IMG/VR virus record: IMGVR_UViG_3300020156_000062
Location: 1 to 37,970 of that record
DNA: 37,970 nt
Source of the DNA: a virus
Direction: 5' to 3' (one strand)
Shown: in pieces, positions 1 to 37,970 of the stretch
How the letters are laid out: every line of letters begins with the position of its first letter
Position numbering within the stretch: the first letter of the stretch is position 1
The notes under the pieces: model-generated
Told to the model about the DNA's origin: nothing
The model's input: only the letters and a program-made list of their open reading frames with translations
Databases searched by the model: none
Made by a program: the position numbers and the translations under genes

Positions 1-157
1 GTCCGCTGCTGGCTACTCCGGCCATGCGTCCGCTGCTGGCTAATACGGCCATGCGTCCGCTGCTGGCGAATACGGCCATGCATCCGCTGCTGGCTACTCC
101 GGCCATGCGTCCGCTGCTGGCTACTCCGGCCATGCGTCCGCTGCTGGCAAATACGGC
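1..157 (+). repeat. 27-bp coding tandem repeat, left part
   Basis: There is a partial unit at 1-22 and full units at 23-49, 50-76, 77-103, 104-130 and 131-157. Each unit reads CAT GCG TCC GCT GCT GGC, then two variable codons (TAC TCC, GAA TAC, AAA TAC or TAA TAC), then GGC. Only one constant-part base differs (GCA for GCG at 80-82). The array continues at 37684-37970. Near-identity at the DNA level suggests recent expansion or gene conversion, so the copy number in the assembly may be wrong. Confidence 0.95.
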
Positions 158-343
158 CATGCTGTAGTTCTCGGGCTGGAAGGCACAGCCCGTTGCGGTG
201 AAAATGGCGCTTTGATCCTCACTTATTGGGACGGTTCAAGAAGACGTCACGTGATCGGTTACGCTGGCGAGAATGGTATCGAAGCAGGTAAATGGTACAA
301 GCTTAACGACAAAAACGAACTGGAAGAAACCAAGGTTTCATAG
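1..343 (+). CDS. DUF7666-type tandem-repeat protein, C-terminal part (gene begins at 37243)
   Basis: This is the 3' part of a gene that starts at 37243 and crosses the probable circular junction. Base 1 is the third base of an Ala codon. Five full 27-bp repeats (23-157) encode nine-residue units HASAAGxxG, and a non-repetitive 61-residue C-terminus follows (from 158, TAG at 341-343). That tail contains a WDGSRRRHVIGYAG stretch and a KWYKLN motif, which I recall as the usual end of DUF7666-type repeat proteins in phages and bacteria. If the 12-bp terminal overlap is collapsed, the whole protein is about 352 residues: 147 N-terminal, 16 repeats and 61 C-terminal. One unit carries an in-frame TAA at 41-43 (TAA TAC where sister units have GAA TAC or AAA TAC). 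This is either a real nonsense change or a repeat-assembly chimera. The family's molecular function is unknown to me. Confidence 0.75.
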
Positions 344-363
344 GTGGAATACATATAATAGCC

Positions 364-393
364 ACCGGGGGCGTTCCCGCTCCCGGTACTTTT
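364..393 (+). terminator. Rho-independent terminator after the repeat-protein gene
   Basis: A 10-bp stem (364-373 with 378-387, one G-T wobble) closes a TTCC tetraloop and is followed by a T-rich tract (390-393). It lies 20 bp after the TAG at 341-343, so the repeat-protein gene ends its own transcription unit and the replication genes downstream need another start or read-through. Confidence 0.85.
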
Positions 394-946: not shown

Positions 947-1282
947 ATGAATATCACATTAACTATCACGGCCAGCGAACCGATCCTTGCGATCTTCCAG
1001 GCCTTTGTTGCGGGCGTGCAGTCAACACCACAAACACCTGCACCTAAAAAGGTGCAGGTGAAAGAAACTCCGGCTGCTAAGGAGCTGCCCGCTGCTCCTG
1101 AAGCCCCTGCCGGCGAAGAAAAAGTGACGCTGGAGCAACTTCGCGCTGTGTCACAGGCGAAATCCCAAGCAGGTAAGCGCGACGGCGTGAAAGGATTACT
1201 CGCCAAATATGGCGTTGACCGCATCACAGCCCTCGCTACTGACCAGTACGGTGCGTTCTACGCTGAAATGGATGCGCTATGA
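947..1282 (+). CDS. Small phage protein with C-terminal helical domain, first gene of the replication cassette
   Basis: A 111-residue protein in three parts: a short N-terminal beta/hydrophobic segment (1-25), a Pro/Ala/Lys-rich linker (26-60) and a compact helical domain (about 60-108) with the pattern VTLEQLRAVSQAKSQAGKR and then LLAKYGVDRITAL. I recall such C-terminal domains from small phage proteins encoded just before DUF2800 genes, where the product is left as hypothetical or given an unreliable rRNA-biogenesis name. Its TGA overlaps the next ATG (ATGA at 1279), indicating coupling with the nuclease. A role as a recombination or replication accessory is inferred from position only. Confidence 0.75.
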   Translation: MNITLTITASEPILAIFQAFVAGVQSTPQTPAPKKVQVKETPAAKELPAAPEAPAGEEKVTLEQLRAVSQAKSQAGKRDGVKGLLAKYGVDRITALATDQYGAFYAEMDAL

Positions 1283-2436
1283 GAACGCATGCCCTTCTTG
1301 CACCTTCTTCGGCTTCCCGTTGGCTGGCATGTACGCCGTCGGCCAGGTTGGAAGAGAAGTTCCCGGACAAGGCGGGGCAAGCTGCCCAGGAAGGTACGCT
1401 TGCCCACGCCCTCGGGGAGCTGTTGATCTTTCGCAAACAGAAGATTGTTTCTAAGGCGGTCTTTGAAAAGGAGCTTAAAGGCATCCAGGAAAATGCGCTG
1501 TACGATGCTGCCATGCTGGAGTACTGCGAGCAATATGCGGTCTATATCCTGGAGCAGTACAATGCCGCGAAGGCGCATACGAAAGACGCGCAAATCTTCC
1601 TGGAACAAAAGCTGGACATGACGGACTATGTACCGGAAGGCTATGGTACGGGCGATGTAGTGATCATTGCCGACGGTGTCATGGACATGATCGATCTGAA
1701 GTACGGCAAGGGCGTTCCTGTCTCCGCGGTGGAAAATCGGCAGATGATGCTGTATGCTTTAGGAGCATTGCGGGAGTTTGACTTCCTGTATGATATCCAG
1801 ACCGTGCGCATGACCATATACCAGCCGCGCCTCGACACGATATCCGTTTGGGAGATATCCGTCAATGAGTTACGGCAGTGGGCAGAAGTGGAACTGAAGC
1901 CCCGCGCGGCCATGGCCTTTGAAGGTAAAGGTGAATATGCCCACGGCACCCATTGCCGGTTTTGCAAAGCGAAAGCCGTATGTAAGGCCAACGCTGACAA
2001 GAACCTGGAGATCGCCCAGTACGAGTTCAAGGACAACGCGCTGCTGTCAGACGAGGACATAACCGACATTCTTAACCGCGCCGAGCAATTCAGTCAGTGG
2101 CTTTCCGGGGTGCAGGAACATGCATTCAACGAGGCGCTTAACGGTAAAAAATGGCCCGGCTGGAAACTGGTTGAAGGCCGCAGTAACCGGCGGTACGCCG
2201 ATCAGAGCGCTGTAGCGGACAAGCTGATCAAAGAAGGCTTTAAAGAAGAGACGATCTACAAGCCGAAGGAACTGCTGACGATCACTGCTATGGAGAAGGC
2301 CATCACCAAAAAAGTGTTTGACGCGACACTTTCTGATCTCATCATCAAACCACCCGGTAAGCCTGCACTGGTACCGGAGAGTGATAAACGTCCGGAGCTG
2401 AACAGCGTTGCCAGCGCAATCGAAGATTTTTCTTAA
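1279..2436 (+). CDS. DUF2800 PD-(D/E)XK nuclease with probable Fe-S cluster
   Basis: This 385-residue protein matches the DUF2800 family of phage recombination nucleases related to the AddB/Cas4-like PD-(D/E)XK fold. Visible signatures are GTLAHALGEL near 39-48, a catalytic stretch with D126 and then the MIDLKYGKG motif (D139, K141), and a Q-motif helix (ENRQMMLYALGAL, 152-164). C18 plus C226, C229 and C235 (CRFCKAKAVC) form the one-plus-three cysteine pattern that holds a 4Fe-4S cluster in AddB-like nucleases. The start overlaps the upstream stop. With the adjacent DUF2815 protein it probably forms an end-processing and ssDNA-handling pair during replication or recombination. Biochemical activity is inferred from the family. 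Confidence 0.9.
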   Translation: MRTHALLAPSSASRWLACTPSARLEEKFPDKAGQAAQEGTLAHALGELLIFRKQKIVSKAVFEKELKGIQENALYDAAMLEYCEQYAVYILEQYNAAKAHTKDAQIFLEQKLDMTDYVPEGYGTGDVVIIADGVMDMIDLKYGKGVPVSAVENRQMMLYALGALREFDFLYDIQTVRMTIYQPRLDTISVWEISVNELRQWAEVELKPRAAMAFEGKGEYAHGTHCRFCKAKAVCKANADKNLEIAQYEFKDNALLSDEDITDILNRAEQFSQWLSGVQEHAFNEALNGKKWPGWKLVEGRSNRRYADQSAVADKLIKEGFKEETIYKPKELLTITAMEKAITKKVFDATLSDLIIKPPGKPALVPESDKRPELNSVASAIEDFS

Positions 2437-2454: not shown

Positions 2455-3033
2455 ATGAGCACAACTGCAACAACCGCACCCGGCAAGGTGATTACCGGCC
2501 TGGTCCGCTTCAGCTACCTGCATGCATGGCACCCGGTAGCCATCGACGAGGGAGGGGAAGCAAAATACAGCGCGTCCCTGATCATCCCGAAAGATGACAA
2601 GGAAACATTGGACAAGATCAACGCGGCCATCGAATCCGTGAAAGCCGTCGTTAAGTCAAAGAATGCCGGTAAGCTGCCGGCAAAGTTCAAACTGCCCCTG
2701 CGCGATGGCGACGAAGAACGCCCCGACGACGAGGCATACGCCAACAGCTACTTCCTGAACGCAAACTGCAAGACCAAACCCGGCATCGTTGGCCCAATGA
2801 AGGACAAAGACGGTAAATGGCTCCCCATCACAAACGAGGACGAACTGTACAGTGGTTGCTATGGCCGCGCCTCCATTACCTTCTATGCCTTTGACACCAA
2901 AGGTAACAAGGGTATCGCCTGCGGGTTGAACAACCTGCAGAAGATCAAAGACGGTGAACCGCTCGGAGGCCGCAGCTCTGCTGATAACGACTTCTCCGAC
3001 GATCTCACACTGGAGGACGACGACCTGTTTTAA
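2455..3033 (+). CDS. DUF2815 ssDNA-binding-like protein
   Basis: A 192-residue protein of the DUF2815 family, whose genes accompany DUF2800 nucleases and family A polymerases in many phages and whose members are thought to bind single-stranded DNA in an OB-like fold. Features are an N-terminal core with VTGLVRFSYLHAWHP-like strands, a central AYANSYFLNANCKTKPGI segment, a conserved CYGRASITFYAFD stretch and an acidic C-terminal tail (DDLTLEDDDLF), as in SSB proteins that recruit partners through the tail. It lies 18 bp after the nuclease and probably coats replication intermediates. The functional assignment is by family, not direct evidence. Confidence 0.88.
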   Translation: MSTTATTAPGKVITGLVRFSYLHAWHPVAIDEGGEAKYSASLIIPKDDKETLDKINAAIESVKAVVKSKNAGKLPAKFKLPLRDGDEERPDDEAYANSYFLNANCKTKPGIVGPMKDKDGKWLPITNEDELYSGCYGRASITFYAFDTKGNKGIACGLNNLQKIKDGEPLGGRSSADNDFSDDLTLEDDDLF

Positions 3034-9775: not shown

Positions 9776-10834
9776 ATGAAAGTAATTTCCCTCATAAACC
9801 CGCACAGTGGTTGTGACTATCACCGGGTGAAGCTGCCGGTAACTTACCTGCACAAAGCGGGGTTGATACAGGGCGTTGTTGCAGACAGCTTCGAGGCATC
9901 GCTGGAACAATGCGAAATCCTGCTTTACAACCGCCTTCCTTTCGGTCGGAGCCTCGAAACGATACTGGAGGCCCGAAAACGATACGGCTTCAAAATCGTG
10001 GTCGATCTGGACGATTACTGGCAACTCTATCCGGGGCATTACCTGGAAAGGGTATGGCAAGCGCAGCAGCTCGAAAAACATATCCTGCGGAACCTGACCA
10101 TTGCAGACGCAGTGATCTGTACCAGCGACCGGTTGAAAGATAAGATCGAGCCGTATAACACGAACGTGTATGTTGTCCCCAACGGCCTACCGTTCGGAGA
10201 TCTCCAGTTTACCCCAGAGCGTGCGCCGGGGCAGCGTATGCGGTTCATGTACTGCGGTGGCGGCTCACACTTTTGGGACGTGCGCCTGCTGGCTGGCGCT
10301 ATGGACAAGCTGGCCCGGCACAACTTTGCCGGTGAGGTTATACTGGCGGGCGTTGCAGACGGCGTGAAGATATACCGAGATATGGCCGGCGTCATGAGTG
10401 CCCAAGGTAGGTTGAAGCATGCCCGTACGCTGAAGTACCAGGCACTTGACAGCTACATGGACCTGTACAATGACGGCGATGTGGCGCTGGCCCCGCTGGT
10501 CGCTAACAGCTTCAATTCCCATAAGTCCAACTTGAAGGTGATAGAAGCCGGCTGCAAGGCGATGCCGATCATCGTATCCAATACCGGGCCGTATTACGAT
10601 GACGAGTGTCCGTATCTCATGCGCGTGGACAGTCCGGGCGAATGGTACAAGTGGATCAGGTTCTGCCACGATAACCCGTCCTTCGTTGAGAACAACGGCG
10701 GCTACCTGCATGAGTACGTGAAACAAAACTACGACATCCGCATCCTGAACTTTTTGCGGATGGAAGCTTTCGAGAGTGTAATGAAAACCGTGAAGTATGG
10801 AAAGAGAGCAGATAATCAACCAGTTCGTGAATGA
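9776..10834 (+). CDS. GT-B fold glycosyltransferase (GT4-like)
   Basis: A 352-residue protein with the layout of a group 1/GT4-like transferase. The N-terminal Rossmann lobe has a glycine and histidine loop (INPHSGCDYHRVKLP), a VVDLDDYWQL motif near residue 78-88, and NVYVVPNGLPF at the hinge. The C-terminal lobe has MRFMYCGGGSHFWD, VALAPLVANSFNSHKSNLK and a KVIEAGCKAMPIIVSNTGP donor-binding segment. It may transfer a sugar to phage DNA, a virion protein or a host glycan; the acceptor cannot be read from sequence. It is separated from the acyltransferase and the GT2 gene by the sigma-like and small genes. Its 3' end overlaps the sigma-like gene by 38 bp. Confidence 0.85.
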   Translation: MKVISLINPHSGCDYHRVKLPVTYLHKAGLIQGVVADSFEASLEQCEILLYNRLPFGRSLETILEARKRYGFKIVVDLDDYWQLYPGHYLERVWQAQQLEKHILRNLTIADAVICTSDRLKDKIEPYNTNVYVVPNGLPFGDLQFTPERAPGQRMRFMYCGGGSHFWDVRLLAGAMDKLARHNFAGEVILAGVADGVKIYRDMAGVMSAQGRLKHARTLKYQALDSYMDLYNDGDVALAPLVANSFNSHKSNLKVIEAGCKAMPIIVSNTGPYYDDECPYLMRVDSPGEWYKWIRFCHDNPSFVENNGGYLHEYVKQNYDIRILNFLRMEAFESVMKTVKYGKRADNQPVRE

Positions 10835-11297
10835 TCCCGAGTACCGGGACATCTGCCGGCATATCGCCGGTGACTATGCCGATGACCTATACCAGGAGCT
10901 GGTATTATTTGTGCTGGAAATGCCGGACGACAAGCTGCGCCGGCTGAATGAAACCTGCCTCAAGTGCTACTTTGTCCGGATGGCACAGGGCCAGTTCAAC
11001 CGGCGCAATGGTGCGTTCTTCCGCAAATACCGGCTGGATGAACGGATGGTAACCGAGCACAAAGACGATATTCTGCAGGCGTGCCAGTCTTCCGCGCCGG
11101 ATCCCGGCCTGGTGGAAAAGGTACAGGAGGTGATGAAGGATACCTACTGGTACGACCAGGGGTTATTCACCCTCTATGCCGAGATGGGCACTATCCGGGA
11201 AGTGTCCGCAAAGACCGGCATCCCTTCTGCGTCCGTGGCCGTTACGGTCCGGGACTATAAAAAGATTCTTCGTAAAAAACTGAAAAAGTATGAATGA
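10797..11297 (+). CDS. Sigma-70-like transcription factor
   Basis: A 166-residue protein that resembles small sigma factors. The N-terminal part has a helical DDLYQELVLFVLEMPDDKL stretch similar to region 2, and the C-terminus has a region-4-like helix-turn-helix (TIREVSAKTGIPSASVAVTV) followed by a basic tail (LRKKLKKYE). The linker is charged. It starts inside the glycosyltransferase gene. Placement just before the terminase and structural block suggests control of late genes. A repeated ~33-bp motif upstream of several late genes is a candidate target. The sigma role is inferred from fold-like features; a plain HTH regulator or a terminase-associated DNA-binding protein is possible. Confidence 0.65.
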   Translation: MEREQIINQFVNDPEYRDICRHIAGDYADDLYQELVLFVLEMPDDKLRRLNETCLKCYFVRMAQGQFNRRNGAFFRKYRLDERMVTEHKDDILQACQSSAPDPGLVEKVQEVMKDTYWYDQGLFTLYAEMGTIREVSAKTGIPSASVAVTVRDYKKILRKKLKKYE

Positions 11298-11559
11298 CTT
11301 GATGATCATCGCTGGGGCTGCATGCCTTGCGATCCTGTTCGTGGAAGTGGCCAATGTGCCACTGTGGATTAAAAAAGTGTTGTGGGGCGATCAGGCGTAC
11401 CGCCATCGGATCAAGCCACTGGACTGCTCTCCGTGCCTTTCTTTCTGGCTCGCTGGATTTTTTTCCATTTTTTTTCACAAAAATCCGCTGGTCGTTCCGT
11501 GTATAGGTGCAATCAGTTCGATTTTGGCTGTTTTAATCATCAAACACATGAGTAAATGA
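11290..11559 (+). CDS. Small multi-pass membrane protein with CxxC
   Basis: An 89-residue protein with three hydrophobic segments: about residues 4-24, 48-60 and 66-84. Between the first two is PLDCSPCLSFWLAGF, a cysteine pair at the start of a membrane helix. I recall such DCxxCLSFW-type motifs from small membrane proteins of Bacteroidetes phages, but no function. The gene overlaps the sigma-like gene by 8 bp. Its sequence also contains copy A of the repeated late-gene motif (11476-11508), so part of its DNA may serve as a control site. Confidence 0.7.
   Translation: MNDLMIIAGAACLAILFVEVANVPLWIKKVLWGDQAYRHRIKPLDCSPCLSFWLAGFFSIFFHKNPLVVPCIGAISSILAVLIIKHMSK
11476..11508 (+). promoter_or_regulatory. 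Repeated late-gene motif, copy A
   Basis: This copy reads CACAAAAATCCGCTGG, then TCGTTCCGTGTATAGGTG. It shares the ACAAA block, a CG-containing middle and the TTCC-GTGTA block with copies B, C and D. It lies inside the membrane-protein gene, 57 bp between its TTCC and the ATG at 11556. Promoter function is inferred, and this copy is the least certain because it is within coding DNA. Confidence 0.45.
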
Positions 11560-11876
11560 GTTTCACAGAAGAACACAAAGCTATACTGGAAAAACATAAG
11601 GAGCACTGGGAGAGCTTGCGCGAAGTCCAGTTCATGCGCAATGTGGATAAGCCGGTGTTCGACGACCTGCAGCGTGTGCACAACGAAGCCATCGGTGTGT
11701 ATTGGTTCAGCCCCTGGTGCTCCAGCTGCGTAGCCGACATGGTGCGCATACTGTATACGCAGTACGACAAGACGCTGCGGACAGAACCATCCGCGTTGGT
11801 CACTAACCCTGAAACAAAAAAACCTAATCGCAAACAACGCAGACATGGACAACAACAGCAGGTTTCCGGGGAATGA
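11556..11876 (+). CDS. Hypothetical protein with WCSSC motif (106 aa)
   Basis: The N-terminal half is charged and helical (EEHKAILEKHKEHWESLRE). The middle has WFSPWCSSCVADMVRILY with a CxxC pair, and the C-terminus is a basic tail (KKPNRKQRRHGQQQQ). The WCSSC looks superficially like a thioredoxin active site, but no thioredoxin fold is apparent around it. Metal binding or a structural disulfide is equally possible. The start overlaps the preceding stop (ATGA). The 3' end overlaps the acyltransferase gene by 32 bp. No family recognised. Confidence 0.7.
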   Translation: MSFTEEHKAILEKHKEHWESLREVQFMRNVDKPVFDDLQRVHNEAIGVYWFSPWCSSCVADMVRILYTQYDKTLRTEPSALVTNPETKKPNRKQRRHGQQQQVSGE

Positions 11877-12393
11877 CATCCATCCGACGGCGGTAATAGG
11901 CCCGAAGGTTATTATGGGTTCGGGCAACTACATCGGCCCGTATTGCGTGATCGGCATGCCGGGCGAACATCGCGGGAAGTGGGGCACCGATGCGGGTGTC
12001 GTTATTGGCAACGGTAACCGGATCACGGGGCACGTCACCATCGATGCCGGTATAGATTTCCCAACAAGGATATTCGACAACGTTATGTTGATGAAGCACT
12101 CCCATGTTGGTCATGATGCTGTTATCCAGCGCGGCGTAACGGTTGCATGCGGTGCCAAGATAGGCGGACATGCGGCATTGGGAGAGTATGTAAACGTAGG
12201 ACTGAACGCCGTGATCCATCAACAGCATCGGGTGCACGCCTGGTGCATGATCGGTATGGGCGCCGTACTTCCGCTGAAGGTTACTACGTCTCCGGGGCAT
12301 ACTTACGTCGGCAATCCCGCGCGGAGTATCGGGCCAAATAAGAAAGCGCCCACTGAAATATTTCCCGCTAAACCGCAAAAACAGATTTCGTAG
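11845..12393 (+). CDS. Left-handed beta-helix acyltransferase (LpxA-like)
   Basis: A 182-residue protein built of hexapeptide repeats of the [LIV]-G-x4 type (AVIGPKVIMGSGNYIGPYCVIGM, then VVIGNGNRITGHVTID and later VACGAKIGGHAALGEYVNVG). Histidines at MKHSHVGHDAVI sit where LpxA-type acyltransferases carry their catalytic His. The C-terminus has YVGNPARSIG, typical of sugar O- or N-acyltransferases. It probably acylates a sugar carried by a nucleotide or lipid. Between two glycosyltransferases, it suggests a dedicated glycan modification. The acceptor is unknown. Confidence 0.85.
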   Translation: MDNNSRFPGNDIHPTAVIGPKVIMGSGNYIGPYCVIGMPGEHRGKWGTDAGVVIGNGNRITGHVTIDAGIDFPTRIFDNVMLMKHSHVGHDAVIQRGVTVACGAKIGGHAALGEYVNVGLNAVIHQQHRVHAWCMIGMGAVLPLKVTTSPGHTYVGNPARSIGPNKKAPTEIFPAKPQKQIS

Positions 12394-12395
12394 TT

Positions 12396-13127
12396 ATGAA
12401 AGTCGCCATCCTGATGCTCTCCTACGAGCGGTACGATACATTGGTCCAGGTGCTGCCGAACAATCTGCAGAATGCAGGGTGTTCGGTGGATCTGTTCATA
12501 CTCGACCAGGGCAGTAAAGATCCACGTGTGTTAGAAATTATCAGCTCGTTACGGAATGGGGATACTCTTCGCGCTGGTATGTGGCATTTCCGAAATGATA
12601 ACATCGGCATCGCGGCCGGCTTCAACTACCTGCTGCGCCAGCATCCAGGCTATGACGCTTACCAGTTCATGGCGAACGACATCCTGGAGCAGCCCGGATG
12701 GGTAGCGAAAAAGGTTGAGTACCTGAAAGCGATCCCGGACAGTGGCATGGTATCCATACCCTGCGGTGATCACGGCTACCCCTCTCGTAAGGCTGGTGGC
12801 TTATGGCTGCATCCCGGTGACGTGATCGGGCAATTCATGATCAGCAGACAGGTGTACGAGAAGGTCGGAGCGTTCCGGGAAGATTTCGGTAAGTACGGTC
12901 CAGTGGACAACGATTACAACATCCGTTGTGCCAAAGCCGGGTTTACGAACTACTACCTGCCCGGTATGAAAGCTGTGCACCTGGACGACCACGCAAACGA
13001 TCTGTACGGCTATGATAAAGCCGCAGCCGTGGCAAAGTCGTGGCCCGAGTTCATGGCTACGGTGAGCGATCAGGAATATTTCATTGCGCCGGAGGATTAC
13101 AACATAAACGCAAAGGAGTATGTGTAG
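12396..13127 (+). CDS. Family 2 (GT-A) glycosyltransferase
   Basis: A 243-residue GT2-like transferase. It begins KVAILMLSYERYDTLVQVLP, the nucleotide-sugar-binding beta-strand, then LFILDQGSKDP, and RNDNIGIAAGFNYLLRQ. The place of the metal-binding DxD is taken by FMANDILEQPGW. The acceptor-side motif is GPVDNDYNIRCAKAGF, in the position of the catalytic ED of the family. It lies 2 bp after the acyltransferase, so the two are co-translated. The pair plus the GT-B enzyme upstream form a small glycan-tailoring module. Confidence 0.85.
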   Translation: MKVAILMLSYERYDTLVQVLPNNLQNAGCSVDLFILDQGSKDPRVLEIISSLRNGDTLRAGMWHFRNDNIGIAAGFNYLLRQHPGYDAYQFMANDILEQPGWVAKKVEYLKAIPDSGMVSIPCGDHGYPSRKAGGLWLHPGDVIGQFMISRQVYEKVGAFREDFGKYGPVDNDYNIRCAKAGFTNYYLPGMKAVHLDDHANDLYGYDKAAAVAKSWPEFMATVSDQEYFIAPEDYNINAKEYV

Positions 13128-28589: not shown

Positions 28590-28968
28590 GCAGCTCAATG
28601 ACTTCGGACAAGGTGACCTTGCAGAGATCTCAGCGAGCACTGACCAGAAGTACCCGCTGATGTGGGTATACTTCGATACCACCAATTACCGGGCCAACGA
28701 ACAGGTATACCCCTTTCGCATTATCCTGATGGACCTGATATACCAGGATAAGTCAAATGAACTGGAGGTGCAAAGTGACATGCTGCAAGTAGCGCAAGAC
28801 CTGTGTGCATTCATGATTGATAACCCTGATTTCGACTTCATGGCAAACAAGGATGTTCCCATGAGATTTTTTACAGACCGTTTCACAGACCTGGTGGCTG
28901 GTATTGATATGACCTTAACCGTCCGTGATCCAAAACCTTTAGACCGATGCGTTATACCTGGACTTTGA
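28537..28968 (+). CDS. Neck/tail-completion-like protein (143 aa, GTG start)
   Basis: Begins with GTG 28537 (MTLNQLVNLLRKFASDHKQL). The middle shows DQKYPLMWVYFDTTNYRAN and YPFRIILMDLIYQDKSNELE, then a helix with MLQVAQDLCAFMIDN. The mixture of helix and strands and its place after the connector suit a tail terminator or neck protein. The GTG is supported by homologous-looking starts of similar proteins that I recall (MTLNQLLxQ). The 3' end overlaps the spike gene by 22 bp. Confidence 0.68.
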   Translation: MTLNQLVNLLRKFASDHKQLNDFGQGDLAEISASTDQKYPLMWVYFDTTNYRANEQVYPFRIILMDLIYQDKSNELEVQSDMLQVAQDLCAFMIDNPDFDFMANKDVPMRFFTDRFTDLVAGIDMTLTVRDPKPLDRCVIPGL

Positions 28969-31127
28969 TTTTTACTATTTTTTGTTTTGCGGCTTCAGCG
29001 CAATGGCGACCTTTGCAGCCTTATTTCATGAGGTATTACGGGCTTCGAGCGGATAGTGCGATACAGATACCTCGGGACACTATAGGTCCTGCGGCGGATT
29101 CGGCGCTACTAGGCTATAAAAGCAGGCAATTGTGGTACAAGACCGATACCGGCTGGGTTCAAGTGGTGAGTAGCCGTTATACAGACAGTATATACTTCGA
29201 TGGATATCAACAGAGCTATAACAAGTATCACGCAGCAGAGGGGATACTAATCTCGTTAAATGGGGATACAGTTATTAATATATTCCGGTTGGACAGCGCA
29301 TTTACTCATGCTGGCGGGAAAGGTCAGATCGTGAAAAGATTGAGTTATGACAATGGTCTTTCATGGACAGTTCCGGAAGTTATATACGACAGTCAATATG
29401 ATGATCGTAACATCAGTGCGGGAAAGACCATATCGGGGCGAATTGTGGTAATATTCAGAAGGTACAACGGCACTACAGTTAGCGGCAACAACATAGATCA
29501 AGGACGGATCTACTCCGATGACGGCGGTATTACATGGTCGGCTTACTCCACAATATCCAGCTTGCTCACTAATCCGGCGCCCTTCGGTAATATCGTAATG
29601 GGTGGCGATGGAGCGTATTATAGCAACTTTTATGTGTTGGGGCGTTCCAGGTTAATCAGGTCAATAGACGGAGATTCGTGGACTGAGACAACAGATATAT
29701 TTAATTTTACGGACACGCGAATACCGAGTGAAACCGTGCTGGCATCCGCAGGCGGTAATAACCTGATCGCCTTATCCCGTGACGACAGTAGCCCCGATAG
29801 TAGCTACTTCCAGCACGTGTCTATAGATAATGGCGTTACCTGGTCATACTCTGGGCGCACCAACATGAACAGCGGTCTACGCTATGTGAATAACGAACCT
29901 CCAGCTATACTCTATGACACAGCCAGACAGCTTTTGATCGCTATCTCCACCTCTCGAAATCACACAGTGAATGCTCCTTATACGGTGAAGGAGGATAGTA
30001 TGTTTGTATATTTGAATCATCCGTCTGACGTATTATCCAACCCCACAGGATGGAGTAAAAAGATAGTGATAGGGCGTCCTGCGCCCTCAACGCCCACGTT
30101 ATATGGGTATCCAAACCTATGCCGGGTGGGTTCTGGCAACTATCTCGGCATAGTTACAGAACTGGGATTTACTGGCTATTCAGCATCTGATAGATGGGGC
30201 GAAGAATTCGCAGCACTTTTTCAATTCGATTTGAACGTTGATCAGAGCGTACTGCCAGGCGCATCTCGATACAGTAACACGGTTGCGGCTATGAATCCAA
30301 TAACTGGTCGATTTGACTATAGAACAGACCGCGTACTATTTGGGGATGGTGCCGACAGTATATCATTCTTCCGGCGTAACAGCACCATGAAGCTTGGCGG
30401 CATGGCCGCTGACCCTAACAGAGAAGTCCTTTCAATAGTCAACGGAAGTGGATCACCTATTTTCCGCGCCAACACAAATGGACAGGTAAACATTGGTTTC
30501 CCCTCCCCAGCATCTCTCGGGGCTAATACTAATATTAGAGGGGAAGTTCGTTTTTTTTCCAGTTCAACAGGATTGGAAACGATCCGCCTCACCGGCACAG
30601 GTCGAATCGGTATTGGCAATGATCCAGCCTACCCCTTGCACGTTACAGGGGTTGCTGCATTGGGCAACACATCGAGAGTTATAGGGACTGGAATCGGCGC
30701 GGCTAACACTGCTATGCTATACTTCACGCAATCAGACGGCACAACAAGGATGGGGTACTTCGGTGATGGAAGTGGATCTACTTCAGACATTAATATTGTG
30801 GCTGATCTTGGAGAGCTTACTCTGAGCGCTGCCAACGGCATCAGAGCCAGCCGCGTCCTTCACAAGCCTATTATAGCCCCATCCGGCAACTTAACATTGG
30901 ATGCTACACATTCTACAGTGAGGGTGACAAACTCTACGCATGTCATAACGTTGCCCGCAGCCAGTACGTGTGTTGGGCGCGTATACACGCTAATTAATTA
31001 TAACACCGGAGGCAACGTGACAATCAGTAGCGTGAACCGTGACGGATCTGCGACGACATCACTCCCTAATAATGCAAAGTGGGTTGTGCAGAGCGACGGG
31101 ACTAACTGGTATGTAATTCAAGATTAA
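28947..31127 (+). CDS. Sialidase-like BNR-repeat tail spike with signal peptide
   Basis: A 726-residue protein. The N-terminus is a signal peptide (RYTWTLIFTIFCFAASAQ, cleavage after Gln or Ala near residue 18-20). The central part has at least three BNR/Asp-box motifs of SxDxGxTW type: SYDNGLSW at ~133, YSDDGGITW at ~189 and SIDNGVTW at ~292. Those repeats occur in sialidase-like beta-propellers. No full set of sialidase catalytic Arg and Tyr was identified. The C-terminal ~120 residues (SGNLTLDATHSTVRVTNSTH, then ITLPAASTCVGRVYTLINYN) match Bacteroidetes fiber tips. Likely a host-glycan-binding or -cleaving spike. A signal peptide on a virion protein is odd. Confidence 0.75.
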   Translation: MRYTWTLIFTIFCFAASAQWRPLQPYFMRYYGLRADSAIQIPRDTIGPAADSALLGYKSRQLWYKTDTGWVQVVSSRYTDSIYFDGYQQSYNKYHAAEGILISLNGDTVINIFRLDSAFTHAGGKGQIVKRLSYDNGLSWTVPEVIYDSQYDDRNISAGKTISGRIVVIFRRYNGTTVSGNNIDQGRIYSDDGGITWSAYSTISSLLTNPAPFGNIVMGGDGAYYSNFYVLGRSRLIRSIDGDSWTETTDIFNFTDTRIPSETVLASAGGNNLIALSRDDSSPDSSYFQHVSIDNGVTWSYSGRTNMNSGLRYVNNEPPAILYDTARQLLIAISTSRNHTVNAPYTVKEDSMFVYLNHPSDVLSNPTGWSKKIVIGRPAPSTPTLYGYPNLCRVGSGNYLGIVTELGFTGYSASDRWGEEFAALFQFDLNVDQSVLPGASRYSNTVAAMNPITGRFDYRTDRVLFGDGADSISFFRRNSTMKLGGMAADPNREVLSIVNGSGSPIFRANTNGQVNIGFPSPASLGANTNIRGEVRFFSSSTGLETIRLTGTGRIGIGNDPAYPLHVTGVAALGNTSRVIGTGIGAANTAMLYFTQSDGTTRMGYFGDGSGSTSDINIVADLGELTLSAANGIRASRVLHKPIIAPSGNLTLDATHSTVRVTNSTHVITLPAASTCVGRVYTLINYNTGGNVTISSVNRDGSATTSLPNNAKWVVQSDGTNWYVIQD

Positions 31128-33115: not shown

Positions 33116-33218
33116 TGTAGCAAGGCTATAGCCACTTTCACAACCGCACATCACACTACGCATTTCCATTACGTTATCATTGCCTATTTTCACAACTGTA
33201 TCACAAACTTTTTCACAG

Positions 33219-34409
33219 ATGGCAATTGTTAAAGTAAAGTTGATGGAGCAGTACCAGCGTAAGGATGGTACCCATGCAGTAGTTATTTATGTGTACGAGA
33301 TCAAACCGCAGTACGTAGGGACCGGCTATCATGTGCGGCCGGAGCAATTTAAGGACGAACAGGATAAATGGATCCGCAAACACCCTGATGCCGTGATTAT
33401 CAATGCCCGGATTGAGGATAAGCGGCGCGAGGTGCTGGAGGCGATTGTGCCCGGCGTTGGCTACGTCCATGGCTACAAATCCGGGCATAACAATGGTAAT
33501 TTTTGCGACTATATCCGGCACAGGGGAGATCAGTACGGAAAAGCTTTGCAGGAGGACATGCGTCTCAAATGTTACCGGTTGGCGTTTGAGCTGGCCCAGG
33601 TCAAAGGAAGGGATATATACGCCCACGAGATTGACGCGGACTTTATCAGGGAGTTCAGGATATGGTGCCAAACAGAAAGAGTAGAAGCAAACGGCAAGGT
33701 GAAAGAGGCGAACAAGAATAACACAGTAATGCGGAAGATAAAGAACCTGCGGTACCTATATAACCAGGCAATTAAGGATAAAAAGGCGTCGGCCCCAAAC
33801 CCGTTCAACGACGTAAAGCTGAAGTTTGACAAGGTTCCCCCGAAGAAATTAACGCGGGAGCAGGTACAAGCAATTGAGGTTTTACCCCTGACATCCGGTA
33901 CCACCATCGATCATGCGCGTAATGCTTTCCTGATATCTTTCTACTGCCAGGGCATGCGTTTTGAAAAAGTATGCCTGCTGAAGTGGGAAGATGTGAAGGG
34001 GGAGTATATTGAATACGAGAACAATAAAGGCAGCAAGCCCCGCTCATTGAAGATAACACCACAACTGCGAATGCTGCTGGACAAATATAAGGGCGCAGGT
34101 ACACCCTACATCCTGCCGTTCCTGAAAAAGGAAGTTCGGGATAAAGTACATCTGCGGAACATGAAGGGCTCGGCCAACGCCATCGTTAATGAGTTCCTAA
34201 AGATAATAGGCGACATGGCTGGCATCCCCGACCCGCTACACTTCCACAGGGCACGGCACGCATTTGCCTATATCGCAAAGAAACGCGGGGTATTGGTGTC
34301 CGTTATCAGCGATTCCCTGGGCCACTCGGACGCTAAGATAACTGAAGACTACCTGGACAGGCTGGACGACGATTTTATCAATGATGCTGTAAGCGTCGTA
34401 TGGGAATAA
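33219..34409 (+). CDS. int: Tyrosine recombinase integrase
   Basis: I start at ATG 33219 (AIVKVKLMEQYQRKDGTHAV), the usual opening of Bacteroidetes integrases; an in-frame ATG at 33180 would add 13 odd residues. The ~396-residue protein has an N-terminal arm-type domain, a SAM-like core-binding domain (KEANKNNTVMRKIKNLRYLY) and a catalytic domain with R247 (CQGMRFEKV), H343 and R346 (HFHRARHAF), H369 (SLGHSD) and nucleophile Y378 (EDYL). All conserved catalytic positions are present. It would integrate and, with an excisionase, excise the phage. Confidence 0.93.
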   Translation: MAIVKVKLMEQYQRKDGTHAVVIYVYEIKPQYVGTGYHVRPEQFKDEQDKWIRKHPDAVIINARIEDKRREVLEAIVPGVGYVHGYKSGHNNGNFCDYIRHRGDQYGKALQEDMRLKCYRLAFELAQVKGRDIYAHEIDADFIREFRIWCQTERVEANGKVKEANKNNTVMRKIKNLRYLYNQAIKDKKASAPNPFNDVKLKFDKVPPKKLTREQVQAIEVLPLTSGTTIDHARNAFLISFYCQGMRFEKVCLLKWEDVKGEYIEYENNKGSKPRSLKITPQLRMLLDKYKGAGTPYILPFLKKEVRDKVHLRNMKGSANAIVNEFLKIIGDMAGIPDPLHFHRARHAFAYIAKKRGVLVSVISDSLGHSDAKITEDYLDRLDDDFINDAVSVVWE

Positions 34410-36720: not shown

Positions 36721-36915
36721 ATGCAGGATAACACGCACATAACAAAATACTACACGATCAACCAAATAGCCGAGTTGCTGAATGTGCACGCGAACACCGT
36801 GGCAAAACTGATCAGGGAACGGAGCATTACAGCTGTGAAGGTCGCAGGCGTATGGCGAGTGTCGCAGATAGCTCTGGATAAATACATCGATTCTCGTACA
36901 GTAAAGGCAAAATAA
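36721..36915 (+). CDS. Helix-turn-helix excisionase/MerR-like protein (64 aa)
   Basis: A 64-residue DNA-binding protein of the excisionase/HTH_17 type: YYTINQIAELLNVHANTVAK, then LIRERSITAVKVAGVWRVSQ and ALDKYI. Members act as excisionases or small regulators. With an integrase in the same genome an excision role is plausible, although it is about 2.3 kb away. The last base of its TAA is the first base of the next ATG (TAATG). Confidence 0.85.
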   Translation: MQDNTHITKYYTINQIAELLNVHANTVAKLIRERSITAVKVAGVWRVSQIALDKYIDSRTVKAK

Positions 36916-37208
36916 TGATCGAAGTAATAGACTATACCATCGATGAAGATATGTCCCTGTTCATTGCCTGGGACCGTGACGGGGATCCGCAGGAGGACAT
37001 CACAATATCTCGCAAACAGTGGTGTGATCTGCTGATGGACCTAGGGTATATCGCGGACTTCCATAACGAGGGACATGTTGCCGTCGAGGTAGACGGGCAG
37101 AAATACTGGATGTCCTTTGACCAGTGGGTGGCTGATGATATGTGTGATAGGGTAGCGCTGGACCTTCTTCAACACATGAAAAAAGCCTCCACGACAGGAG
37201 GCCTCTGA
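36915..37208 (+). CDS. Hypothetical acidic early protein (97 aa)
   Basis: Coupled to the HTH gene (TAATG). The sequence is acidic with no Lys-rich or membrane part: VIDYTIDEDMSLFIAWDRDG, then QWCDLLMDLGYIADFHNEGH and YWMSFDQWVADDMCDRVALD. Acidic small early phage proteins may mimic DNA or inhibit host enzymes; nothing here proves it. The 3' end contains a GC hairpin (37185-37202). Confidence 0.65.
   Translation: MIEVIDYTIDEDMSLFIAWDRDGDPQEDITISRKQWCDLLMDLGYIADFHNEGHVAVEVDGQKYWMSFDQWVADDMCDRVALDLLQHMKKASTTGGL
37185..37202 (-). terminator. Hairpin with T-run on the minus strand
   Basis: Perfect 6-bp stem GCCTCC (37185-37190) with GGAGGC (37197-37202), ACGACA loop. Six A precede it on the plus strand, so the usual T-run follows it only on the minus strand. 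It thus looks like a terminator for leftward transcription, overlapping the end of the plus-strand gene. Forward termination is weak at best. Confidence 0.5.
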
Positions 37209-37242: not shown

Positions 37243-37970
37243 ATGCAAAATTATCAACTCCCCGAGGGAAAAGTTCTTGTCCTGCGATCCTGCAAGCCCG
37301 ACATGACATCAAAAAACGATTTCGCATGGCCGGAATCCGGGCCTGTCTCCTGCCCCGACTGGCGCGACAACGCTGAGTGCGGTAACGGTCTTCACGGTTG
37401 GCTGTGGGCACAGGGTGACTACGATCTGAAGTACAAAGATGTTGGCGCAAAGTGGCTGGTAGTTGAAGTAGATGCGCAAGATGTCCGTCAACTCAACGGG
37501 AAGGTAAAGTTCCCCAAGGGGAATGTTCTTTTAACCGGCAATTTCCGGACTGCTTACGATGCAGTGATGAAGCAGTTCTGGCTGAAGCATGCAGCAGAGC
37601 TGCGCGCCATGGTCACTGTTGACAGCAACGCTACCTACAGCAAAGAAGATGGAGTAAGCGTGAGCACAACGGAAACAAAACAGCATGCGTCCGCTGCTGG
37701 CGAATACGGCCATGCGTCCGCTGCTGGCTACTCCGGCCATGCGTCCGCTGCTGGCGAATACGGCCATGCGTCCGCTGCTGGCTACTCCGGCCATGCGTCC
37801 GCTGCTGGCTACTCCGGCCATGCGTCCGCTGCTGGCGAATCCGGCCATGCGTCCGCTGCTGGCTACTCCGGCCATGCGTCCGCTGCTGGCTACTCCGGCC
37901 ATGCGTCCGCTGCTGGCAAATACGGCCATGCGTCCGCTGCTGGCGAATCCGGCCATGCGTCCGCTGCTGG
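37243..37970 (+). CDS. DUF7666-type tandem-repeat protein, N-terminal part (continues at 1-343)
   Basis: Starts at ATG 37243 in an A-rich leader. The first 147 residues are non-repetitive: LPEGKVLVLRSCKPDMTSKN, then CGNGLHGWLWAQGDYDLKYK and KFPKGNVLLTGNFRTAYDAV, matching my memory of the DUF7666 N-terminal domain. From residue 148 (37684) ten full nine-residue repeats HASAAGxxG and a partial one follow to the window end, in frame with base 1. The whole gene then ends at 343. The last 12 bases repeat the first 12, as expected if the contig is circular and cut inside the repeat. The product may form an elongated repeat rod. Its function is unknown to me. Confidence 0.82.
   Translation, partial: MQNYQLPEGKVLVLRSCKPDMTSKNDFAWPESGPVSCPDWRDNAECGNGLHGWLWAQGDYDLKYKDVGAKWLVVEVDAQDVRQLNGKVKFPKGNVLLTGNFRTAYDAVMKQFWLKHAAELRAMVTVDSNATYSKEDGVSVSTTETKQHASAAGEYGHASAAGYSGHASAAGEYGHASAAGYSGHASAAGYSGHASAAGESGHASAAGYSGHASAAGYSGHASAAGKYGHASAAGESGHASAA
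37684..37970 (+). repeat. 27-bp coding tandem repeat, right part
   Basis: Ten complete 27-bp units (37684-37953) and a 17-bp partial unit. The order of the variable codon pair is EY, YS, EY, YS, YS, ES, YS, YS, KY, ES. All variation is at two adjacent codons; the seven flanking codons (HASAAG and G) are identical at the DNA level. With the left part, 16 units in total if the 12-bp overlap is collapsed. Confidence 0.95.

What the first reader, a model, noticed from the sequence alone, without database searches (positions are those of the whole stretch)
37684..37970. Circular genome cut inside a coding VNTR with confined two-codon variation
The window begins and ends inside the same 27-bp coding repeat. 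The last 12 bases equal the first 12, and the reading frame stays open through the joint apart from the TAA at 41-43. All 16 inferred units share seven of nine codons almost exactly at DNA level. Variation is limited to two adjacent codons (YS, EY, ES, KY). This looks like a cassette that can expand, contract or shuffle by recombination, giving a rod-like protein of variable length and surface. In a temperate phage this may be a host-interaction or decoy protein. Its position between the early genes and the replication cassette, with its own terminator, suggests independent expression.
Basis: partly seen in the sequence, partly recalled or inferred. Interest (0 to 1): 0.7.

Follow-up and report, generated by a model that had tools for sequence, protein, structure and literature searches.

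The report
Phage repeat-rod gene cut by assembly

Summary
The right end (37243-37970) encodes a DUF7666 domain plus 10.6 copies of a 27-bp repeat. The left end (1-343) encodes 5.8 more copies and a C-terminal cap. A Chitinophaga rhizosphaerae prophage carries the same gene uninterrupted with collinear neighbours, so the joint is real. The 12-bp overlap proves nothing: 31 of 79 related viral contigs also end in this array, and at least 11 records carry the cap at the opposite end, with exact overlaps of 0-114 bp. The record is a genome cut by assembly at its own VNTR. Copy number is unresolved (13-16 or more), and the TAA at 41-43 is probably an assembly error.

The family is known: Bordetella phage BPP-1 Bbp36 with variable region VR2, PHROG 18079. 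New here: AlphaFold2 predicts N-domain, beta-solenoid (one strand per unit) and cap. Across about 900 units, variation is almost wholly nonsynonymous and confined to the two turn residues. Phages identical over 10 kb differ by exactly one unit. Mechanism: recombination or slippage shuffles a few unit types, and selection keeps the turn loops diverse. The biological role is inferred: a non-essential, early, intracellular host-interaction accessory, with a weak structural echo of phage RIIB.

The parts
37243..37970 (+). 5' part of the VNTR gene: N-terminal domain, linker, first part of the repeat array (reading frame runs off the window end)
   Evidence: ORF open to the end; phrog_18079 E 3e-34
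37273..37527 (+). DUF7666 domain (PF24703), residues 11-95
   Evidence: hmmscan E 9e-10, 39.4 bits over cut-off 27; AF2 mean pLDDT 95.9 for residues 1-125
37684..37970 (+). repeat array, right part: ten 27-bp units plus 17 bp (HASAAGxxG; xx = EY, YS, ES, KY)
   Evidence: TRF score 483, unit table
1..157 (+). repeat array, left part: partial unit 1-22 and five units 23-157
   Evidence: TRF score 261, unit table
41..43 (+). in-frame TAA in one unit; probable assembly error or a disabling mutation
   Evidence: only stop codon seen at the first variable codon among about 900 units; the 93-bp alternative overlap disagrees with it
158..343 (+). 3' end of the gene: C-terminal cap domain and stop codon (TAG 341-343)
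   Evidence: 84% identical to the Chitinophaga orthologue; phrog_18079 E 1.1e-13; conserved cap alignment
364..387 (+). terminator-like hairpin behind the gene
   Evidence: 10-pair stem with T-rich tail; similar hairpin at L019 5869-5890; about one such site is expected by chance
36721..36915 (+). upstream neighbour, HTH_17 regulator/excisionase-like protein
   Evidence: Pfam E 3.6e-12
36915..37208 (+). upstream neighbour of unknown function, collinear in L019 and L036
   Evidence: tblastn; no Pfam match
1279..2436 (+). downstream neighbour, DUF2800/PD-(D/E)XK nuclease, collinear in L019
   Evidence: Pfam E 4.6e-154
2455..3033 (+). downstream neighbour, Enc34-type ssDNA-binding protein, collinear in L019
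   Evidence: Pfam E 6.6e-67
33180..34409 (+). tyrosine integrase (temperate lifestyle)
   Evidence: Pfam Phage_integrase E 1.2e-13

Best explanation
The window is a full-length temperate phage genome, probably of a Bacteroidota host near Chitinophaga, that assembly opened inside its one long coding VNTR. The gene is a member of the DUF7666 / phrog_18079 family that includes Bbp36 of Bordetella phage BPP-1. Its product has three parts: a compact N-terminal domain; a beta-solenoid rod in which each 9-residue unit gives one strand (HASAA) and one turn (G-x-x-G); and a C-terminal cap. The 18-21 bp constant blocks act as homology, so slippage or recombination adds, drops and reorders whole units drawn from a small alphabet of types. 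Selection keeps the two turn residues varied while the strand residues and their codons stay fixed. The result is a rod whose length and exposed edge change quickly. Shown: gene, joint, family, copy-number change between near-identical phages, restriction of variation to two codons. Predicted: the fold. Inferred: diversifying selection, and a role as a non-essential, early, cytoplasmic accessory that meets a variable host or competitor factor.
For: One uninterrupted orthologue with collinear flanks: upstream matches window 35.8-37.2 kb, downstream matches window 0.9-5.2 kb. DUF7666 E 9e-10; phrog_18079 hits both halves. Bbp36, Mica 'ice nucleation protein' and D14O have the same three-part layout. 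AF2: N-domain blocks pLDDT 86-98, repeats 80-85 with one strand per unit, variable dipeptide in the turns. In 66 eight-residue arrays (699 units) and 21 nine-residue arrays (206 units), nonsynonymous differences per codon are 0.58-0.68 at the two variable codons against 0.05 or less elsewhere, and synonymous differences at the variable codons are 0.01 or less. 82 of 83 arrays keep two or more unit types. L054/L055: 10.3 kb without mismatch, one 24-bp unit apart; L094/L098/L099: flanks 98-100% identical, arrays different. 31 of 79 contigs end in the array; 11 records carry the cap at the other end. No reverse transcriptase in the record, so a diversity-generating retroelement is not at work.
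Against: The role is not shown. There are no reads, so array length and the TAA are open. The excess of nonsynonymous change could partly reflect old unit types kept by recombination rather than present selection. L054, L055 and most of the arrays counted come from assemblies that may themselves miscount units. Cytoplasmic location rests on the lack of an obvious signal sequence and on the gene context only.
Confidence: 0.6

Rival explanations
1. Pure VNTR drift: the array slips neutrally, the strand residues are held by folding, and the turn residues vary because almost anything fits there. There is no host interaction and no diversifying selection.
For: Unit order within arrays is close to random (adjacent identical units 195 observed, 208 +/- 10 expected); the gene is reported as non-essential in a relative (PMC2884959); D, Y and N are natural turn residues.
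Against: Synonymous change at constant codons (about 0.01-0.14 per codon) predicts far less turn change than the 0.6 per codon seen, and synonymous change inside the variable codons is nearly absent. Nearly every array keeps at least two types.
Confidence: 0.25
2. Tail-fibre or collagen-like virion protein whose length sets host recognition.
For: Weak repeat-driven hits to the Pfam collagen model (E 1.1e-6) and to PHROG tail-fibre families.
Against: Gly at every third residue is absent. The hits cover only the low-complexity repeat. The gene lies in the early regulator/replication region, not the tail module. The relative Bbp36 is reported as non-essential and not tied to tropism (PMC2884959).
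Confidence: 0.06
3. The gene is genuinely broken in this phage: the TAA at 41-43 truncates the protein inside the rod. (This could hold alongside the best explanation.)
For: TAA is one base from the GAA and AAA codons used at the same place in other units.
Against: No other stop at this codon among about 900 units. It lies 41 bp from a contig end, near the only other odd base (A82); both disagree with the right end under the 93-bp overlap.
Confidence: 0.2
4. Ice-nucleation-like or ice-binding protein, as one GenBank record names a relative.
For: The 8-residue STLTGGxx and GTATAGxx repeats resemble the half-repeat of bacterial ice-nucleation proteins (own knowledge); Mica is annotated so from a SwissProt match.
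Against: No Pfam ice-nucleation match in the family members scanned. The TxT motif is missing in many members (HASAAG, SRLAASG, STAASSG). Arrays are short and hosts include Pseudomonas aeruginosa and Bordetella.
Confidence: 0.03

Closest known systems
Bbp36 of Bordetella phage BPP-1/BMP-1 with variable region 2 (VR2)
   Same: DUF7666 domain (E 1.7e-10), tandem array with a constant block and a variable dipeptide, C-terminal cap, position after the repressor genes and just before exonuclease and ssDNA-binding genes; repeat number varies among isolates (PMC2884959)
   Different: 8-residue (24-bp) GTATAGxx unit instead of 9-residue (27-bp) GHASAAGxx; about 37% identity in the N-domain; different host phylum
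Prophage gene in Chitinophaga rhizosphaerae T16R-86 (L019/L035)
   Same: whole gene in one frame, 71% identical N-domain, 84% identical C-terminal part, collinear neighbours
   Different: 7-8 units; dipeptides KY, YG, DG
Burkholderia phage Mica gp52 'ice nucleation protein' and Pseudomonas phage D14O homologue
   Same: N-domain, repeats, cap
   Different: only 3-4 units; misleading names
Mycobacteriophage Tweety gp54 / Che8 gp57 / PMC gp51
   Same: gene with a coding VNTR whose copy number differs between close relatives and whose change looks selected (PMC2884959)
   Different: tetrapeptide repeat; homology to DUF7666 not tested here
Phage T4 RIIB and relatives
   Same: the N-domain resembles RIIB models in Foldseek (probability 1.00, E 3e-3 to 3e-2) and aligns weakly with T4 RIIB 247-287 (C..GLH motif; E 0.04)
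   Different: RIIB has an N-terminal helix-turn-helix and no repeat rod; no DUF7666 hit in Pfam
Bacterial ice-nucleation proteins
   Same: short Thr/Ser/Gly repeats expected to form a beta-solenoid with variable turn residues (own knowledge)
   Different: no ice-nucleation domain match; short arrays

Membership tests
DUF7666 / phrog_18079 (Bbp36-like) family | DUF7666 domain over the curated Pfam cut-off | tested here: met
   39.4 bits against cut-off 27
DUF7666 / phrog_18079 (Bbp36-like) family | PHROG profile hit by both N-terminal and C-terminal parts | tested here: met
   phrog_18079 E 3e-34 and 1.1e-13
DUF7666 / phrog_18079 (Bbp36-like) family | central array with constant block and variable dipeptide, then conserved cap | tested here: met
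VR2-type variable repeat (as in BMP-1 bbp36) | copy number differs among isolates of the same phage | tested here: inconclusive
   not testable for this record itself; shown for other family members (L054/L055)
VR2-type variable repeat (as in BMP-1 bbp36) | gene dispensable for growth | not testable with these tools
   reported for bbp36 only (PMC2884959)
Diversity-generating retroelement target | reverse transcriptase in the phage | tested here: not met
   no RVT_1 match in the record
Collagen-like protein | Gly at every third residue of the repeat | tested here: not met
   G-H-A-S-A-A-G-x-x has Ser at position 4; the Pfam hit is compositional
Ice-nucleation protein | Pfam ice-nucleation repeat match | tested here: not met
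   none among Pfam hits up to E 1 for the window protein or E 0.1 for six relatives
RIIB protein | sequence-level homology over the whole protein, with HTH | tested here: not met
   only a local, weak alignment to T4 RIIB; no HTH here
RIIB protein | shared fold of one domain | tested here: inconclusive
   Foldseek probability 1.00, E 3e-3 to 3e-2 against predicted RIIB models; no PDB support

The most novel reading that the evidence does not exclude
A widespread, RT-free diversification system in phages. A beta-solenoid with exact 18-21 bp homology blocks lets the phage's own exonuclease/ssDNA-binding recombination genes, encoded next door, reshuffle turn-loop cassettes. The result is fast-changing intracellular binding surfaces that counter host defences or rival phages.
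Probability: 0.2. Interest if true: 0.8.

Novelty: new member of a known kind. Interest (0 to 1): 0.42.

Why it matters
Bbp36/VR2 was described about twenty years ago and is still without a function. The wider set gathered here makes it tractable: a predicted fold, a precise two-residue site of variation, and pairs of nearly identical phages that differ by single units. There is also a practical point. Phage genomes carrying this gene are often broken exactly there by assemblers, so complete genomes can look like linear fragments. Searching for the DUF7666 domain at one end and the cap at the other would rescue them.

Tried and rejected
Single-sequence search of viral contigs with the N-domain found nothing; an alignment query was needed. 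Proof of circularity from the 12-bp overlap was rejected. A diversity-generating retroelement was rejected. Collagen, tail-fibre and ice-nucleation assignments were rejected as compositional or unmet. Foldseek of the full model and of the N-domain against the PDB gave nothing significant; ADP-ribosyltransferase folds (Arr 2hw2, TreTu 7zhl) turn up among the insignificant N-domain hits and are only a lead. Profile search of PDB sequences gave nothing. Neighbour-gene scans showed early recombination, methylation and integration genes but no single conserved partner. Strict alternation of unit types was tested and not found. No paper in the library mentions DUF7666. The primary VR2 paper (Liu et al. 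2004) was not read and is cited only as quoted in PMC2884959. Only 1 of 197 genomes searched in the family of the L019 genome carries a close relative of its N-domain, so it is an accessory gene.

Full report
WHAT IS THERE. The window is the whole of one viral record of 37,970 bases. Its right end holds the start of a gene: ATG at 37243, a DUF7666 domain (PF24703, E 9e-10), a linker, then ten full 27-bp units and 17 bases of an eleventh. Its left end holds 22 bases of a unit, five full units, a distinct C-terminal part and the stop TAG at 341-343. Of 27 columns in the 15 full units only four vary: one synonymous G/A and three bases in codons 7 and 8.

IS IT ONE GENE ACROSS THE ENDS? Yes, but not because 12 bases match. 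The decisive evidence is an orthologue in the chromosome of Chitinophaga rhizosphaerae T16R-86 (L019; also the IMG/VR record behind L005/L035). It has N-domain, repeats and C-terminal part in one frame. Its upstream neighbours match window genes at 35.8-37.2 kb and its downstream neighbours match window genes at 0.9-5.2 kb in order: DUF2800 nuclease, Enc34-type ssDNA-binding protein, polymerase. The same search in L036, part of a 37.6-kb record, finds the whole gene with about 66-76% identity.

WHY THE RECORD IS CUT THERE. A search by the N-domain alone, which does not depend on contig ends, returned 79 viral loci. In 31 of them the contig ends inside this gene, nearly always in the array. For contigs of 30-60 kb I would expect one or two such ends by chance (my estimate from gene length over contig length). 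Ten of the 31, plus L018, carry the missing cap within about 70-450 bases of the opposite end and in the right orientation. Their exact end overlaps of 8 bases or more are none, 9, 11, 14/86, 18/114, 23, 29 or 109 bases. So this is a recurrent assembly failure in a coding VNTR, and the window is one more case. Whether the DNA is physically circular or circularly permuted in particles is not settled.

COPY NUMBER AND THE STOP CODON. A 12-base joint gives 16 units with TAA at 41-43. A 93-base joint with three mismatches gives 13 units and, read with the right-end bases, an intact 325-residue frame; two of the three mismatches are the only two odd bases of the array, T41 and A82. No other stop occurs at the first variable codon among about 900 units of the family. 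The likeliest reading is an assembly error near the contig end. The true number of units is unknown and could be larger.

FAMILY. Both halves hit phrog_18079. Relatives include Bbp36 of Bordetella phage BPP-1, whose record marks 'variable region 2; VR2' over the repeats, Burkholderia phage Mica gp52, named 'ice nucleation protein', and Pseudomonas phage D14O. All have N-domain, array and cap. As quoted in the Tweety paper (PMC2884959), VR2 is a 24-bp element, 19 constant bases and one of three 5-base spacers, present 9-20 times depending on isolate; the gene is not essential and VR2 does not appear to reflect tropism. The finding is therefore a new member of a known kind. In genomes it is scattered over Bacteroidota, Proteobacteria, Acidobacteria and others and is rare within one host family (1 of 197 genomes).

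ANATOMY OF THE PROTEIN. AlphaFold2 on the Chitinophaga orthologue with an alignment of 39 sequences gives a confident N-domain (block pLDDT 86-98), a weak linker, a regular run of strands with one strand per unit at about pLDDT 80-85, and a confident cap. The strand is HASAA and the variable dipeptide lies in the turn G-x-x-G. This supports a beta-solenoid rod whose edge displays the variable residues. The N-domain alone from the window folds at pLDDT 95.9 but has no significant match among solved structures. Against predicted viral structures the full model matches DUF7666 proteins and, with probability 1.00 but E of only 3e-3 to 3e-2, several RIIB proteins. T4 RIIB 247-287 aligns weakly around a C..GLH motif. 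I treat the RIIB link as a lead.

HOW THE ARRAY CHANGES. Across 66 eight-residue arrays (699 units) and 21 nine-residue arrays (206 units), two units of one array differ by 0.58-0.68 nonsynonymous changes per codon at the two turn codons, and by 0.05 or less at the other codons. Synonymous change is 0.01-0.14 at the constant codons and 0.01 or less at the turn codons. Of 83 arrays only one, of four units, has a single type. Unit types recur whole: in L014/L016 a synonymous GGT/GGC base travels with the type. L054 and L055, from two metagenomes, are identical over 10.3 kb except for one 24-bp unit. L094, L098 and L099 are 98-100% identical in the flanks but have different arrays. This fits gain, loss and reordering of whole units by slippage or recombination in the constant block, with selection against uniform arrays. 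The selection step is inference.

CONTEXT AND ROLE. The gene follows a helix-turn-helix gene and precedes recombination/replication genes, as Bbp36 does. A terminator-like hairpin follows at 364-387 and a similar one follows the orthologue, though single hits of this kind are expected by chance. Neighbours in other phages are early genes: exonucleases, RecT, ssDNA-binding proteins, methyltransferases, integrases. No retroelement reverse transcriptase is present. My committed view, at about one in three for the role alone, is a cytoplasmic, dispensable accessory that faces a variable host or competitor factor. The anatomy, joint and family assignment I hold at about 0.9.

VERDICT. Observation confirmed, interpretation partly supported. 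The striking 'genome cut inside a VNTR' is an assembly signature seen in at least 11 further records. The biology behind it, a fast-changing repeat rod with two free residues per unit, is known in outline and still unexplained.

Noticed in passing
L037, L040, L043, L044, L047, L050, L066, L067, L071, L100, L018 (other ends in L115-L125): Eleven other IMG/VR records of 37.8-87.5 kb have both ends inside the same kind of gene and are probably complete genomes that look linear.
   Followed up: yes
E. coli YdhT (NCBIfam NF007410) against window 11-328: The C-terminal part of this gene resembles E. coli YdhT (E 2e-11, 2e-12), a cellular protein of the ydhYVWXUT operon by my recollection; a chromosomal relative may exist.
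   Followed up: partly
T4 RIIB residues 231-287 (L114): A C..GLH motif and following strand align weakly with the DUF7666 domain, and predicted RIIB models match the fold; RIIB may carry a divergent DUF7666 domain.
   Followed up: partly
model mdb777517779d (window 37243-37617): The confident N-domain model has no significant PDB match; insignificant hits include ADP-ribosyltransferases (Arr, TreTu), so a degenerate ART-like fold is possible.
   Followed up: partly
window 37186-37207, minus strand: GCCTCC-TGTCGT-GGAGGC-TTTTTT reads as a terminator on the minus strand just upstream of the gene, although no clear minus-strand gene lies behind it.
   Followed up: no
window 37684-37970 and 1-157, all frames: The 27-bp unit has no stop in most frames, so long spurious ORFs run through the array on both strands (e.g. 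37531-37956 minus, 37685-37969 plus).
   Followed up: no
window 9776-13127: Glycosyltransferase-like, hexapeptide acyltransferase-like and GT2-like ORFs lie between the replication and packaging genes, judged from the translations only.
   Followed up: no
window 28947-31127: A 726-residue ORF in the tail region starts like a signal sequence and contains SxDxGxxW-like motifs reminiscent of sialidase Asp-boxes.
   Followed up: no
L006 2255 onward: A relative's array shifts frame inside the repeat (GHASAAG to AMRPPPG), a sign of either sequencing error or decay in the array.
   Followed up: no
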